Position numbers and translations under genes: made by a program. A stretch of DNA of 34,657 bases from Arthrobacter sp. RIT-PI-e (GTDB taxonomy: Bacteria; Actinomycetota; Actinomycetes; Actinomycetales; Micrococcaceae), in the NCBI RefSeq assembly GCF_001187915.1, contig NZ_LGIU01000048.1, positions 1-34,657 on the forward strand, in the 5' to 3' direction. Under the pieces are notes generated by a model that saw only the letters and a list, made by a program, of their open reading frames with translations, searched no databases and was not told the origin of the DNA. Position 1 is the stretch's first letter, and every line of letters starts with the position of its first letter. Below, in pieces: positions 1 through 5,778 of this stretch.

Positions 1-71
1 TTCTGGTCGATGATTTCTCCTGTCACAGGATCGATCATCGTCTCTGTTGCTTCGGTCGTGAAGTCTTTCAC
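1..71 (-). CDS. 5' end of an unknown protein, cut by the left edge
   Basis: Reading the minus strand, an AAGGAG Shine-Dalgarno (complement of about 78-85) lies six bases upstream of a GTG at 69-71. The frame stays open to the edge and gives VKDFTTEATETMIDPVTGEI followed by I-D-Q. An in-frame ATG at 75-77 directly abuts the Shine-Dalgarno and is less likely to be used. Only about 23 residues are visible, so no family can be assigned. Its position beside an integrase remnant suggests it belongs to the accessory block. Confidence 0.5.
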   Translation of the reverse strand, partial: MKDFTTEATETMIDPVTGEIIDQ

Positions 72-483
72 GGCCATCTCCTTTCGGATCAGGCCGGACC
101 CTCACACACCGTTATTCAGACAGTCCCCCGGAGGCCCGCCGAGCGGGCCCGCACCTAGGGCGGCACCCGGGGTGGTGCCCTAAGTGCGCAGACAGAGGGG
201 CGGCGGGAACACCCGGGGCGAGGGTAGCCCCTCACCCACCCACCAGCTCGAAGCCAAGAACAAAGGTGCGAGGTAGGTAAGGGCCGGGGATGAGACGACA
301 CCCCAGGAGAGACCAGACAACGGCACAGGGTCAATGGTGGGGGAACACCAGAGGACCGTGTGCCGCCGACACGGGTAAGTCGAGCAGCGAGCGCGGTGGG
401 TTACGTGAACCAGGGCACGCCACGAGGCCCTGGGGTTCGCGCAGGGGTCGGGTGCTGAATGGGCAGGCTTGGGTGCTCGATGG
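72..483. other. Intergenic stretch without a supported gene
   Basis: This stretch of about 410 bases separates the edge gene from the integrase remnant. The short frames here have no Shine-Dalgarno and no recognisable protein content. The only structure seen is the hairpin pair at 133-182, annotated separately. It probably contains the promoter and leader of the minus-strand gene at the left edge. Confidence 0.5.
133..182. repeat. Two adjacent GC-rich hairpins
   Basis: GGCCCGC at 133-139 pairs perfectly with GCGGGCC at 143-149 across a three-base loop. Directly after it, TAGGG at 156-160 and CACC at 164-167 pair with GGTG at 174-177 and CCCTA at 178-182, leaving a three-base bulge. There is no T-tract. 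They lie 60-110 bases upstream of the minus-strand gene at the left edge. They could be a leader structure, a terminator pair for a plus-strand transcript, or part of an element end; the sequence does not decide. Confidence 0.4.
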
Positions 484-984
484 TCAGGCCAGGGTGCGAG
501 CGGGGTTGTTGCGTACCCGGTCGTATCTGTGCGTGGTGCGGGAGCCGGTGTGGCTCATGTTGTCCTGCAAAACGTGAAGGGAGATGCCGGTTTTTGGTGC
601 GGTGGTCGTGGAGGTGTGGCGGAGGCTGTGTGGGTTGATCTGTCCCTGGGTACCCGCTACGCGGGCCAGGTACTGCACAGTGCGGACTGTCTCGGATGCG
701 CTTTGGTATCTGCTCGTGGCTGTCGTGAGAGTAGGTGGGCCTGTGCTGCGAGCGCTTGTGGGTTCTTGCCCGATGGTTTTGGGGTGTGTGTTCGGTGTGT
801 GCGTTGCTGGTGCCGGCGCCGCCGTCTTTGCCGTAGGGCCGCTCGTGCGCTGGATGGTCAGAGTTCGATGCCCTGTCTCGTGTGCGTAGTGTGTGGTGTC
901 CGTGGTCAGCGCCTCACCGGATCGAACACCTGTGGTGGGTCCGCTCCGGGCTGAGCAGGTCGAGCCCGTGGAGCGTCGAGCCGC
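484..984 (-). pseudogene. Tyrosine recombinase/integrase remnant, N-terminus lost
   Basis: A minus-strand frame stays open from about 984 to a TGA at 484-486 (about 166 codons) but has no good start; a TGA at 985-987 closes it upstream. It matches the catalytic half of actinobacterial phage-type integrases in order: GVRSGEAL (box I arginine), TGHRTLTIQR followed by a lysine (beta-hairpin), INPHSLRHTS (H-x-x-R box), and MSHTGSRTTHRYDR with the box II histidine and candidate tyrosine nucleophile. The N-terminal core-binding domain cannot be found in any frame upstream, although 906-1106 is open in another frame. Only a GTG at 676-678 could start a short 64-residue product. I infer a decayed integrase of the element to which neighbouring genes may belong. 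Confidence 0.72.
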
Positions 985-3053: not shown

Positions 3054-3842
3054 CTACACCGCGCCCTTCTTCCTCGAGTATCGAGCGAGTCCGTCCTGGG
3101 TCTGGTACTCGGTGACGTTCATCCTGAACCCGGTGATCTTGTGTGGCCCCGGCGCGCTGGTTCTGCCCTCGTACATGGCGGCCATCACGACGTCGACCCA
3201 CTGCTCGATACCACCGGCGGTCCTGATGGACCTCAACGCCTGGGAGACATAGGTGCCGCCCTTCTCCCCGATGGTGACCTGGCGGCCGTTGTCCAGGGTC
3301 GCGGTGAAAGTGACCTTCTTGTCCCGGTGGGCCTGGCTGCGGGCCACACCGGCGAGCTTGTCCATGATCGCTTTCAGCCCTCGGGCGCGGCTGTCCTTGT
3401 TGGTCCTGCTCATGGTGACCTGATGGACCCGGTTGCCGTCCTTCGAGTACGACGAGCTCTGACTGAACCTGTTGGGCACCTTGGAGACATACCGGCCGTC
3501 GGTGTCCTCGGGCACGACGGTGGGCGCTTTGACCTTACTGCCGTCCGGGGTTGGCACGGGCGGGTGCTCGGCGCCCTGCTTCGCGCGCACGGGCACGATC
3601 CCGCCGTCCTTGCTCCGTCGCCGGGGTGGACGACGATCCACCACCCCGTTGTCCCGTAACGAGACCAGGGCGGCCCGGAACGACTCACCCCGGGACTCCC
3701 CGTTCAGCAGCTTGCCCACCATGCGCGGGGACCGGCCCAGCTCCGCGGCGATGTCGGCCCGGCTGAGCTTGCGCACCTCCATGACGCCGCGCACGAGGTC
3801 CGCCACGGACTCGGGCCCATCGGGTACACCGTTCTCGGTCAT
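3054..3842 (-). CDS. Helix-turn-helix protein paired with the PolB-like gene
   Basis: This is a 262-aa protein. Residues about 15-50 form a helix-turn-helix, with LSRADIAAELGRSPRMVGKL at its core, as in XRE-type DNA-binding domains. A basic, low-complexity linker follows (about 70-150, RRPPRRR then Pro/Lys-rich). A C-terminal globular domain of about 110 residues contains VTFTATLDNGRQVTIGEKGG and ends in Arg/Lys. I do not recognise the C-terminal domain. The ATG at 3842 lies three bases after the TAG of the upstream PolB-like gene and has no strong Shine-Dalgarno, which points to translational coupling and a shared function. It could be an origin-binding or priming partner, or an autoregulator of the pair; the sequence alone does not separate these. 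Confidence 0.78.
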   Translation of the reverse strand: MTENGVPDGPESVADLVRGVMEVRKLSRADIAAELGRSPRMVGKLLNGESRGESFRAALVSLRDNGVVDRRPPRRRSKDGGIVPVRAKQGAEHPPVPTPDGSKVKAPTVVPEDTDGRYVSKVPNRFSQSSSYSKDGNRVHQVTMSRTNKDSRARGLKAIMDKLAGVARSQAHRDKKVTFTATLDNGRQVTIGEKGGTYVSQALRSIRTAGGIEQWVDVVMAAMYEGRTSAPGPHKITGFRMNVTEYQTQDGLARYSRKKGAV

Positions 3843-3845
3843 GGT

Positions 3846-5474
3846 CTATGCACCCCAGGCTGCGCAGGGTCCTGCCACTGCAGCTCTCTTCTTCAATGCG
3901 TCACGCTGATCCTTGGTCACCGGAATCTTCATCTCACCAAGGAGCAGACCCTGGAGGCGGATGCGGCCCTCCCTGCCGTCGTCGCCCCCACCGTGCCCGG
4001 CCGGCAACGACCACCCGGGCACGGTACTGGTGTAGATCGCGTCCCCCTCGATCCCCAGCAGGGTCCTCGGGTCGACGTGCAGGGCGCCTGCGTACCGGCC
4101 CTGCGTCCCCGGGACCGGGGAGGGCGCGGAGAGCACCTGGGCTCTGGACCACCCCCATACCTGGGACGCCAGCTCCGGGTGATACCGGGACCTGTCCGCA
4201 GCGGACAGCTCCGGGCGGGCCGAATACACGAATCGATCCCCCACCTGCTCGTACTCCACGTTCGGCGGCAGGTCATCGACATGATCGACCGAGAGGGGCG
4301 ACTCCTTACCGCGCATCACGAACCGGCCGATCCCGTGGATCAGGATGTTCCGCAGTGCGTTCAGCACCGCCCGCTTCACCACCGGCTCCGCTTCGGCGTC
4401 GGCCACCTGGGCGCGCAGGCGCTTGATCCGTTCGGCGAACGTGTCCAGTGGCCGTAGTTTCTCGGTGAACCGGATGCCTTCCAGGGGTTCGATGCCCCAC
4501 CCGAAGCGCTCCGCGACCAGCAGCTCCCGGTGATCGGCCCACGTCACCCCGGTGGCCCCGGGACGGTTCGGGTAGTACCAGTCCGTCGAGCTACCGGGAT
4601 CCTGCACGCCCAGGATGCCGACATGCGGCCAGGTGTCAGGCACCCGGAACCTCACGCGGTAGCGGGCCTTGGCGTACCTACCCGCTGATCCCTGGAAGAA
4701 CCACAGATCATTGGCCTGCTCGTAGGTCAGCTCGGTCGCCGGTCCGACGCCGAGCTCGGCGCAGTGCGCCGCGTACATGAACCTCCCGTCCGAGTGCGCG
4801 AAGGTATCGATCATCGGGGTCTGCCTGGAGTCCACGAGCGCCACGGTATCGGGGTGCTCGGAAGCATTCGGACCGGCGACCAGATGCTCCATGTGGTGCT
4901 GACCCGAGGTCGCATGCAGGAGTTCCGCGACGGCGTCACTGACCGGTTCCGGGTCGAAACGCGTCCCCTTGCGCTCGGTGACACTGAACGCCCACAGAAT
5001 TGCTCCCGTGAGCCCGGGGGACATCAGCGGCGTCGCCATCTCCGGTTCGACCCGGTTGAGATAGTAGCGCAGCGCACCCCACGCGTGCGATGCCTGGACG
5101 GGAGACAGGATCACATCACCGAACCAGGTGGAGGCCATGCTGATCTCCACCTTCTGCCCTGTCAGCGTGTTCGTGTACCGTCCGCGCTTGTCGTCACGCC
5201 GGTAGTGCTCCCCGTGAGCCCACCCCGGGGTCGGGGTGTCCATCCAGCTCTGACGGTCCTTCGGCGTCCGCGGCTCAGCCCCGGTGAGCATGATCCACTC
5301 GACCCCCGCATGTGCGGCCGTATCCAGCAGGTCATCGAGCTGCGGTGTCCTGTGCCGCGACTTGATCACCGTCGACACCGAGCGCCCGTCCAACGTCACA
5401 CCCCTGCCGGTGGTGGCGTCCAACCACATCACCGGTTTCGGCTTCGGCTTCATCGTCACCGGCCGCACAGCCAC
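3846..5474 (-). CDS. Diverged family-B DNA polymerase-like protein (palm motifs, degenerate catalytic site)
   Basis: This is a 542-aa protein without an obvious name, but its architecture follows compact PolB enzymes such as phi29 polymerase. Motif A-like SDGRFMYAA has D229 and Y234 spaced as in D-x4-Y. A TPR-like segment follows at about 270-340 (YRVRFRVP, then WADHRELLVAERFGWGIEPL). Motif B-like VVKRAVLNALRNILIHGIGR has K367 and N372. A helix HPELASQVWGWSRAQVL (432-448) precedes motif C-like GIEGDAIYTS, where D478 is present but the second Asp of D-T-D is replaced. The N-terminus has only a faint exonuclease I match (LDATTG, D19, no Glu), so proofreading is probably absent. GTG at 5474 is annotated; a second GTG at 5468 sits five bases after ACGGAG and may be the true start. 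The helix-turn-helix gene follows. Polymerase activity is doubtful. Confidence 0.6.
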   Translation of the reverse strand: MAVRPVTMKPKPKPVMWLDATTGRGVTLDGRSVSTVIKSRHRTPQLDDLLDTAAHAGVEWIMLTGAEPRTPKDRQSWMDTPTPGWAHGEHYRRDDKRGRYTNTLTGQKVEISMASTWFGDVILSPVQASHAWGALRYYLNRVEPEMATPLMSPGLTGAILWAFSVTERKGTRFDPEPVSDAVAELLHATSGQHHMEHLVAGPNASEHPDTVALVDSRQTPMIDTFAHSDGRFMYAAHCAELGVGPATELTYEQANDLWFFQGSAGRYAKARYRVRFRVPDTWPHVGILGVQDPGSSTDWYYPNRPGATGVTWADHRELLVAERFGWGIEPLEGIRFTEKLRPLDTFAERIKRLRAQVADAEAEPVVKRAVLNALRNILIHGIGRFVMRGKESPLSVDHVDDLPPNVEYEQVGDRFVYSARPELSAADRSRYHPELASQVWGWSRAQVLSAPSPVPGTQGRYAGALHVDPRTLLGIEGDAIYTSTVPGWSLPAGHGGGDDGREGRIRLQGLLLGEMKIPVTKDQRDALKKRAAVAGPCAAWGA

Positions 5475-5778
5475 TCCGTTCGCATCTGTCCTCGTACTCC
5501 CACTTCATTCTTGCATCAGCGCCATCGACCAGCCGTCCCGCGACATCACCCGCCAGCAGAACCGGCCTGCCGACGAGCACGACGACGAGCCGGGTCCGTC
5601 ACGCCGAACCCCGTCCGCCAGCGCGCCACGATCCGGCCGGGACCCGGCCAGCGGTGCGCGACCGGATGCAGGGATGAGGACCGCCGCAGCCCGGCACCGA
5701 CCTCACGACGGAGGTCCCCGGTGCTCGTGGGTCTCACCGGGAGTCACCCTGATCAGGGTGGCTCCCGGTGGTGGCGTG
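5475..5778. other. Spacer between accessory block and aldo/keto reductase
   Basis: This spacer of about 300 bases has no gene. It contains the presumed promoter region of the PolB-like operon on the right-to-left strand and the strong hairpin at 5735-5770 near its right end. Frames crossing it have atypical composition and no start signals. Confidence 0.5.
5735..5770 (-). terminator. 16-bp stem hairpin terminator after the aldo/keto reductase
   Basis: CACCGGGAGTCACCCT at 5735-5750 pairs with 5755-5770 across a GATC loop, with a single G-T wobble. It begins eight bases past the stop of the minus-strand reductase gene. There is no long T-tract, as is common in high-GC actinobacteria. It also insulates the accessory block to its left. 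Confidence 0.75.

What the first reader, a model, noticed from the sequence alone, without database searches (positions are those of the whole stretch)
3054..5474. Two-gene module: degenerate family-B DNA polymerase-like protein plus helix-turn-helix partner
The 542-aa protein reproduces the order and spacing of compact PolB enzymes: motif A D-x4-Y at 229-234, a WADHREL/GWGIEPL segment, motif B VLNALRN near 370, the HPELASQVWGWSRA helix, and motif C GIEGDAIYTS. The second motif C aspartate is gone and the exonuclease region is barely recognisable. A helix-turn-helix protein starts three bases downstream, and an integrase remnant lies nearby. This could be a catalytically altered replication protein of an undescribed integrated element (pipolin-, linear-plasmid- or phage-like), or a PolB fold repurposed for DNA binding or regulation.
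Basis: partly seen in the sequence, partly recalled or inferred. Interest (0 to 1): 0.75.

Follow-up and report, generated by a model that had tools for sequence, protein, structure and literature searches.

The report
Telomere polymerase with its protein primer
Two neighbouring genes appear to encode a stripped-down virus-like DNA polymerase and the protein it uses as a primer to finish the ends of linear bacterial DNA; the kind is known from linear plasmids, but here the pair sits in an ordinary chromosome.

Summary
In detail: a 542-aa and a 262-aa gene, 3 bases apart, window 3054-5474 (-). The 542-aa model (pLDDT 86) matches phi29 DNA polymerase over its length (Foldseek E 1e-10). In 37 distinct family sequences the motif A Asp, motif B base and Gly, and one motif C Asp are kept; the first motif C Asp and the exonuclease signature are lost. 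Relatives lie on actinobacterial plasmids (55 of 56 records), several linear in print, beside a relative of the 262-aa gene in 50 of 51 loci. Two carriers, pSCO2 and pFRL3, are in print with SCP1-type telomeres, and pSCO2 with tac and tpc (PMC8743542). I conclude: a Tac-Tpc-like end-patching polymerase and its terminal protein. Four of 18 carriers read show an end starting G6-8C, 0 of 7 controls; all four were among the first nine read. The family shares a domain with Tap (hhalign E 8e-11), which print calls unrelated to Tac. The phi29 likeness of a pCff1 protein was published in 2022. Unusual here: an apparently orphan chromosomal copy near the proteasome locus. SCP1 Tac itself could not be compared.

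The parts
3846..5474 (-). 542-aa Tac-like, phi29-type PolB-fold protein: degenerate exonuclease-like N-terminus, then palm/fingers; proposed protein-primed telomere polymerase
   Evidence: ORF; model; Foldseek; relatives; motifs
3054..3842 (-). 262-aa Tpc-like partner: N-terminal helix-turn-helix, C-terminal alpha/beta domain; proposed terminal protein (primer)
   Evidence: ORF; relatives; alignments; model (pLDDT 83, pTM 0.55)
4788..4790 (-). codon of D229, motif A (D-x4-Y), end of a predicted strand
   Evidence: 37 of 37 sequences; strand 221-230
4326..4352 (-). motif B-like R375...G383 (PolB: K-x7-G, recalled)
   Evidence: R 34 / K 3, G 37 of 37
4041..4043 (-). codon of D478, motif C aspartate in a predicted beta-hairpin turn (472-476 / 479-482)
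   Evidence: 37 of 37
4539..4580 (-). W299-P302-G306-W312 segment, between motifs A and B where phi29 has TPR1; within the stretch shared with Tap
   Evidence: W, P, G, W each 37 of 37; profile matches

Best explanation
The pair is a Tac-Tpc-type telomere module of actinobacterial linear replicons, now in a chromosome. The 262-aa protein is the terminal protein: its helix-turn-helix end is taken to bind telomere or partner, and a hydroxyl of its own primes synthesis. The 542-aa protein is a divergent phi29-type (protein-primed) family-B polymerase. It docks the terminal protein, joins the first deoxynucleotide (dGMP, if the telomere is of the G-run type) to it with metals held by D229 and D478, and extends it by a short oligonucleotide on the 3' overhang left by internally started replication. 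Having lost the exonuclease signature and one motif C Asp, it would be a primer-specific, short-product enzyme; host polymerases would finish. Shown here: fold likeness, invariant residues, conserved pairing, occurrence on plasmids several of which are linear in print, G-run ends in some of them. Shown in print for others: Tac plus Tpc suffice for protein-primed synthesis. Inferred: identity of this pair with Tac-Tpc, the priming residue, and activity in this strain.
For: Model of the 542-aa protein matches phi29 DNA polymerase over its length (1xhx E 1.1e-10, TM 0.51; all 8 PDB matches with E<=1e-3 are phi29 polymerase); among 40 viral models with E<=1e-3 are the polymerases of GA-1, a tectivirus and His1. 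Motif residues kept in 37 distinct sequences. tblastn: 56 plasmid records, 55 actinobacterial, 38 covering at least 80% of the query in one place; linear in print: pLMV7 and pLMA7 with covalently bound terminal proteins (PMC3869321, PMC5823993), pCSL1 (PMC9190974), pSCO2 and pFRL3 (PMC8743542). Of the 18 family records whose ends I read, 12 are labelled linear. The partner is adjacent in 50 of 51 loci, not all of them distinct; the exception is cut by its contig end. Of five small plasmids compared ORF by ORF, the 542-aa family was the only one found in all five. pSCO2 and pFRL3 are family members; both have SCP1-type telomeres, and pSCO2 carries tac/tpc but no tap/tpg (PMC8743542). Tac with Tpc suffices for protein-primed synthesis (PMC4513846). 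Ends starting G6-8C: pLMV7 both, pSCO2 both, pFRL3 right, pC1b right = 6 of 36 ends, against 0 of 14 control ends; background 3e-4 per place. In one host, Curtobacterium sp. C1, the right end of pC1b (this family) starts GGGGGGC and both ends of pC1c (Tap) start CCTGC. No Tap match beyond the N-terminal HTH part of the model in 12 of 12 family plasmids searched.
Against: SCP1, the source of the characterised Tac and Tpc, is not held, so homology to Tac is indirect: which pSCO2 genes the authors call tac and tpc was not seen. 14 of 18 records examined show no G-run end, among them all nine that I read after the pattern had been noticed; of the four with it, two (pSCO2, pFRL3) were already known as SCP1-type. 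Unfinished or rotated record ends would explain the misses, and for pC1b the left end is short of the right one by 436 bases, but for the others this is not shown. Pfam, NCBIfam and PHROGs give no polymerase hit for the 542-aa protein. The first motif C Asp, important in ordinary PolBs (recalled), is missing. The partner has no detectable homology to the pAL1 terminal protein beyond 20 columns of helix-turn-helix (E 0.14), and phi29 terminal protein is not among the 50 matches shown for its model. In this genome no linear replicon or plasmid backbone was recognised (one conjugation ATPase sought, none; no positive control), so a telomere function here is unproven.
Confidence: 0.78

Rival explanations
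1. The pair is a replication initiator (Rep plus regulator) for an internal origin of these plasmids, and linear topology is incidental.
For: No other gene family is found in all five small plasmids compared; the partner carries a helix-turn-helix; six of 18 records read are labelled circular (two of these are linear in print).
Against: phi29-polymerase fold with invariant catalytic residues; the Rothia plasmid has its own RepA (PF04796) besides the pair; G-run ends in 4 of 18 records.
Confidence: 0.1
2. It is a full phi29-like replicase that copies whole plasmids from their ends by strand displacement, not just an end-patching enzyme.
For: Length and fold close to phi29 polymerase (542 against 571 residues in 1xhx); no other family in all five small plasmids.
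Against: Exonuclease signature and first motif C Asp lost; the Tac and Tap enzymes in print make only short oligomers, and Streptomyces linear replicons are said to start internally (PMC4513846); carrier plasmids range from 19 kb (pSCO2) to hundreds of kb.
Confidence: 0.08
3. In this genome the pair is a chromosomal relic or a domesticated copy that no longer serves any telomere (compatible with the best explanation of what the pair is).
For: It lies on the contig of the proteasome/Pup locus; 1 of 38 genus genomes, this one, has it; no plasmid conjugation ATPase found (no positive control); the contig starts in a repeat shared with other contigs.
Against: Both frames are intact and all motif residues are kept; in Kitasatospora viridifaciens chromosomal tac/tpc is proposed to serve both chromosome and plasmid telomeres (PMC7188733).
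Confidence: 0.45

Closest known systems
Tac-Tpc telomere pair of SCP1, pSCO2 and pFRL3 (Streptomyces linear plasmids)
   Same: Two-gene order, downstream HTH terminal protein of similar size (Tpc 259 aa, PMC3572947; partner 262 aa); pSCO2 and pFRL3 carry the present family
   Different: Chromosomal; 28-29% identical to the pSCO2 and pFRL3 members; direct comparison with SCP1 Tac not possible
gp137 of Curtobacterium pCff1 (PMC8929003)
   Same: pCff1 carries a 45%-identical homologue with the neighbour gene; gp137 was published as phi29-like by HHpred and AlphaFold. That the two are the same gene is inferred: the paper's gene numbers were not matched
   Different: The passages seen do not link it to telomeres or to its partner; 'telomere' does not occur in the main text ('Tac' was not searched for there)
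phi29-type protein-primed family-B DNA polymerase
   Same: Overall fold, D-x4-Y motif A, basic-x7-G motif B, motif C Asp in a hairpin turn (motifs of phi29 recalled)
   Different: Exonuclease signature and first motif C Asp lost; no sequence-profile hit
Tap-Tpg and the pAL1.101 telomere-associated protein
   Same: C-terminal domain homologous (hhalign E 8e-11); D, K, G and D invariant in matching order in 6 sequences
   Different: The Tap-type proteins carry further N-terminal parts; control ends mostly start CC (12 of 14); terminal proteins not homologous beyond the HTH

Membership tests
Tac-Tpc (SCP1-type telomere pair) | large gene followed by a terminal-protein gene with an N-terminal helix-turn-helix | tested here: met
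Tac-Tpc (SCP1-type telomere pair) | homology to SCP1 Tac and Tpc | not testable with these tools
   SCP1 not held; indirect link through pSCO2 and pFRL3
Tac-Tpc (SCP1-type telomere pair) | replicon ends start with a G-run followed by C | tested here: inconclusive
   4 of 18 family records (6 of 36 ends): 4 of the first 9 read, 0 of the next 9; 0 of 7 controls; no replicon end in the window
Tac-Tpc (SCP1-type telomere pair) | deoxynucleotidylation of the terminal protein | not testable with these tools
   needs purified proteins
phi29-type protein-primed PolB | PolB fold | tested here: met
   Foldseek E 1.1e-10 to 1xhx
phi29-type protein-primed PolB | both motif C aspartates (YxDTDS, recalled) | tested here: not met
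   position 476 E/N/R/H/Q/G; D478 kept 37 of 37
phi29-type protein-primed PolB | 3'-5' exonuclease motifs | tested here: not met
   D19 mostly kept (32 of 37), but position 21, where the Asp-x-Glu pair would end, is mostly T and E only once; motif positions recalled
phi29-type protein-primed PolB | TPR1 and TPR2 insertions | tested here: inconclusive
   a conserved segment lies where TPR1 would be; no superposition could be read
Tap (NCBIfam NF047542) | match to the family model | tested here: not met
   no hit of the 542-aa protein nor in its genome; distant homology only
Pipolin (piPolB element) | integrase and tRNA attachment site with an intact piPolB | tested here: not met
   no tRNA in the window, no integrase hit in 15 ORFs, motif C incomplete; defining features recalled

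The most novel reading that the evidence does not exclude
All actinobacterial telomere-associated proteins (Tac, Tap, pAL1.101) are one superfamily of reduced protein-primed family-B polymerases: a phage-type replicase that lost proofreading, one motif C aspartate and processive elongation and was turned into a telomere-finishing enzyme, so that end patching descends from phi29-like protein-primed replication rather than being an independent invention.
Probability: 0.6. Interest if true: 0.75.

Novelty: new member of a known kind. Interest (0 to 1): 0.52.

Why it matters
[quoted passage not shown] The results here give the two a common domain and name the residues (D229, R375, D478 in this protein) that would carry catalysis, so a standing puzzle of bacterial telomere replication becomes testable by point mutation. 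They also tie the pCff1-type 'phage-like polymerase' of Micrococcales plasmids to telomere end patching, and offer a way to recognise telomere pairs on linear plasmids that annotation leaves as 'hypothetical'.

Tried and rejected
Viral contigs: no stretch matched the pattern scan. PDB by sequence: nothing meaningful. PADLOC: only weak hits, to the partner. Tpg model in the own genome: nothing, uninformative because its control is empty. Looking for an empty insertion site: the flanking genes are not syntenic in the seven relatives' stretches taken; only the aldo/keto reductase gene or only the 382-aa gene aligned, so no junction could be drawn. The plasmid ends give only short, chance-like matches in the window, and the window has no G6-8C run on its + strand and five GC6 runs, none at an end. 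Partner fold: the best PDB matches are meaningless (HppE, E 1e-3, TM 0.17); a DinB/Dpo4 match of about 125 columns (E 0.02) is a lead only. The K. viridifaciens tac/tpc tags in print (BOQ63_42425/42430) are not the tags of the family pair on pKVP2 (BOQ63_042775/042770), so that paper could not fix identity. Caveats on counts: the HMMs were built from many of the loci they were then run on, and the 51 loci include repeats (ten share one 542-aa protein; L008 and L037 are one record); the independent check is tblastn with the 262-aa protein alone (29 records; the 20 listed all lie beside the large gene, the other 9 were not listed). The model alignment used 20 of the 31 genome-contig loci: nine identical copies, L017 and the truncated L042 were left out. 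Ends were read for 18 of the 56 records, chosen by me: nine, where the G-run was noticed in four, and nine more, where none had it; paired ends are not independent. SAP1 was used as a control without checking its tap gene.
Full report
What is there. Window 3846-5474 (-) encodes 542 aa from GTG, and 3054-3842 (-) encodes 262 aa from ATG, with 3 bases between them. The 542-aa protein has no hit in Pfam, NCBIfam or PHROGs at E up to 10; the 262-aa protein has only weak PHROG hits (best E 0.036, over its helix-turn-helix). The rest of the window is ordinary chromosome: aldo/keto reductase, a UvrA-like ABC ATPase (Pfam says ABC_tran; the name UvrA-like is recalled), S9 peptidase, glycosyl transferase, amidohydrolase, DSHCT helicase, TatC/TatA, PafC-type regulator, FKBP, two Pup-ligase proteins, proteasome subunit and ATPase, TrmI. 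So the pair is in a chromosome, 0.3 kb from the aldo/keto reductase gene. To its left lies a 382-aa gene matched over nearly its length in 10 of the other 37 genus genomes. The contig starts in a 127-bp repeat that is also found whole in four other contigs of the genome, at base 1 of three of them. The pair's large gene occurs in 1 of 38 genomes of the genus, the window's own, and in 2 of 396 sampled from the phylum, the window's own included.

Relatives. tblastn of the 542-aa protein against 72,556 plasmid records found 56 records; 38 hold at least 80% of it in one place; the last two listed (E 5 and 6, one of them the only non-actinobacterial record) are at chance level by themselves. The hosts are Curtobacterium, Clavibacter, Microbacterium, Micrococcus, Glutamicibacter, Paenarthrobacter, Rothia, Kocuria, Kineococcus, Cutibacterium, Streptomyces and Kitasatospora. 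Published linear plasmids among them are pLMV7 and pLMA7, with terminal proteins on their 5' ends (PMC3869321 and PMC5823993, whole texts read), pCSL1 (PMC9190974, passages), pSCO2 and pFRL3 (PMC8743542, passages). Of 18 records whose ends I read, 12 are labelled linear and six circular; pCSL1 and pSCO2 are labelled circular although print calls them linear, so the label is unreliable. The single scan of genome contigs gave 31 loci; ten of them, from Microbacterium, a Leucobacter MAG and an 'Acidobacteria' MAG, encode an identical 542-aa protein, a sign of recent transfer or of contaminated bins.

Pairing. In 50 of 51 loci searched (the window included, some loci redundant) the 262-aa family lies directly beside the large gene; the exception, L042, is cut by its contig end. 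In the genome contigs the two genes mostly overlap by a few bases or lie 2-3 bases apart, once 67 (its crude rule picked a wrong frame for the partner in at least one locus, L027). In some Streptomyces-type records the gap reaches about 125 bases. The HMMs were built partly from the same loci; independently, tblastn with the 262-aa protein alone found 29 records, and the 20 listed all lie beside the large gene. Across five small plasmids compared ORF by ORF (pC1b, the C. acnes plasmid, Paenarthrobacter, Rothia, pSCO2) the large gene is the only one found in all five at E 1e-5; the partner, a ParA and conjugation genes are found in four.

Fold and active site. A 21-sequence alignment gave a confident model (pLDDT 86.2, pTM 0.85). 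Its eight PDB matches with E at or below 1e-3 are all phi29 DNA polymerase, including the complex with terminal protein (2ex3), over about 600 alignment columns, TM 0.46-0.51, identity 8-10%. Of viral models, 40 match at E at or below 1e-3; they include polymerases of GA-1, a tectivirus and His1 but also poxvirus and giant-virus proteins. In 37 distinct sequences (40 before identical ones were dropped, this protein included) D229, G383 and D478 are invariant, Y234 is Y in 36 and F in one, and position 375 is R in 34 and K in 3. D229 closes a strand and D478 sits in a hairpin turn in the model, as motif A and motif C aspartates do in PolB (recalled). Position 477 is T in the seven Streptomyces-type sequences, giving (R/G)-T-D-(A/G) at motif C, which places D478 on the second Asp of D-T-D-S; the first is lost in all 37. 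The exonuclease domain is present as a fold, but its acidic motif is not conserved (position 21). Coordinates could not be superposed with these tools.

Link to Tac-Tpc. A paper on streptomycete telomeres (PMC8743542, passages read) lists three SCP1-type telomeres, on SCP1, pSCO2 and pFRL3, and says that SCP1 and the S. collinus plasmid carry tac and tpc and lack tap and tpg. Both pSCO2 and pFRL3 carry the present pair. Tpc is 259 aa with an N-terminal helix-turn-helix, downstream of tac (PMC3572947, passages), matching the present partner in size and layout. Tac and Tpc alone carry out protein-primed synthesis, and SCP1 telomeres start with a run of G followed by C (PMC4513846: abstract, methods, passages and discussion). 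I read the ends of 18 of the 56 records. Six of 36 ends, in four records, start with G6-8C: pLMV7 both (after three bases, possibly left over from SpeI cloning, which is my guess), pSCO2 both, pFRL3 right, pC1b right. All four were among the nine family records, where I noticed the pattern; the nine further family records gave none. Two of the four were already known as SCP1-type, so the new cases are pLMV7 and pC1b. Background for G6-8C within the first four places is 263 in 861,198. Seven control records gave 0 of 14 ends; 12 of those 14 start CC. Six of the seven have a Tap-type gene seen here; SAP1 was not checked for its tap. pC1b and pC1c come from the same strain and differ in this way. 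The left end of pC1b repeats bases 437-737 of its right end, so that record lacks its left telomere; for the other records without a G-run, incompleteness is likely but not shown.

Link to Tap. A weak hit led to pAL1, whose 1707-aa telomere-associated protein precedes a 210-aa HTH protein. NCBIfam's Tap model matches that protein's C-terminal part (E 2e-26) and the Tpg model matches the small protein weakly (2e-5), both under their curated cut-offs. The present family's profile, which contains no Tap sequence, hits inside the Tap-type gene of 5 of 6 such plasmids (E 1e-9 to 2e-5; Brachybacterium avium missed; SAP1 gave none). Profile-profile comparison of 21 family members with 6 Tap C-termini gives E 8e-11 and 97% probability over 185 columns, from the residue after D229 to residue 487, with D478 set against the Tap Asp. 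In the six Tap sequences an Asp (84), a Lys (208), a Gly eight on (216) and an Asp (267) are invariant, in the order expected of motifs A, B and C. The 2015 paper states that the two classes share no homology and have no polymerase motif. PolB motifs in pAL1.101 were reported by Kolkenbrock et al. 2010; the paper is not held, and that content is recalled, only the citation having been seen.

What is already in print. Curtobacterium pCff1 gp137 was reported in 2022 as distantly related to phi29 polymerase by HHpred and AlphaFold (PMC8929003: sections 35 and 40 and passages). pCff1 carries a 45%-identical homologue of the present protein with its neighbour gene; that this is gp137 is inferred. 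The passages seen do not mention telomeres or the partner, and the word 'telomere' has no occurrence in that paper's main text. Another paper found no Tac/Tpc homologues in its Streptomyces population (PMC7205883, passages). Searches for print joining these lines (listings, some of the listed papers then read in part) showed none; most subscription papers are not held.

Mechanism proposed. Internal replication leaves 3' overhangs; the HTH protein and the polymerase meet there; the polymerase adds a first nucleotide to the terminal protein and a few more, then host enzymes fill in. The segment around W299-W312, invariant at four positions here and within the stretch shared with Tap, lies where phi29 has TPR1, the subdomain that binds terminal protein (PMC6921018, abstract and passages); that it docks the partner is an inference. 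The priming residue is not identified: no Ser, Thr or Tyr of the partner is among the invariant columns.

State in this genome. The frames are intact and all motif residues kept, but no Tap or Tpg match (the latter without a positive control) and no plasmid conjugation ATPase (likewise) were found. The copy may be a relic of an integrated linear plasmid, or it may serve a linear replicon not recognised in the 104-contig assembly. In Kitasatospora viridifaciens chromosomal tac/tpc is proposed to serve both chromosome and plasmid telomeres (PMC7188733, passages).

Noticed in passing
window 1-127: A 127-bp sequence at the contig start occurs whole in four other contigs of this genome (at base 1 of three) and in several other genus genomes, in some more than once: the edge of a mobile or repeated element.
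   Followed up: partly
window 5735-5770: Near-perfect 18+18-nt inverted repeat with no spacer just downstream of the aldo/keto reductase gene, probably its terminator, separating it from the pair.
   Followed up: no
window 504-670 and 2715-2891: Stretches about 73-75% identical to other places of the same genome (contigs C32, C82 and C11), in gene-poor DNA on either side of the 382-aa gene.
   Followed up: no
window 3054-3842 (C-terminal domain, residues about 127-245): The predicted partner weakly resembles Y-family polymerases over about 125 columns (MsDpo4, pol kappa; E 0.02-0.1; that the match falls in this domain is inferred, the aligned range was not shown); of interest because DinB enzymes are implicated in Streptomyces end patching.
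   Followed up: no
L020, L021, L022, L023, L024, L025, L030, L039, L041, L044: Ten loci encode the same 542-aa protein letter for letter, from several Microbacterium records and two MAGs named otherwise: a recently spread plasmid or contaminated bins.
   Followed up: no
G000:C13:39824-40608: A second copy of the aldo/keto reductase gene, about 80% identical, matched in two adjacent pieces.
   Followed up: no
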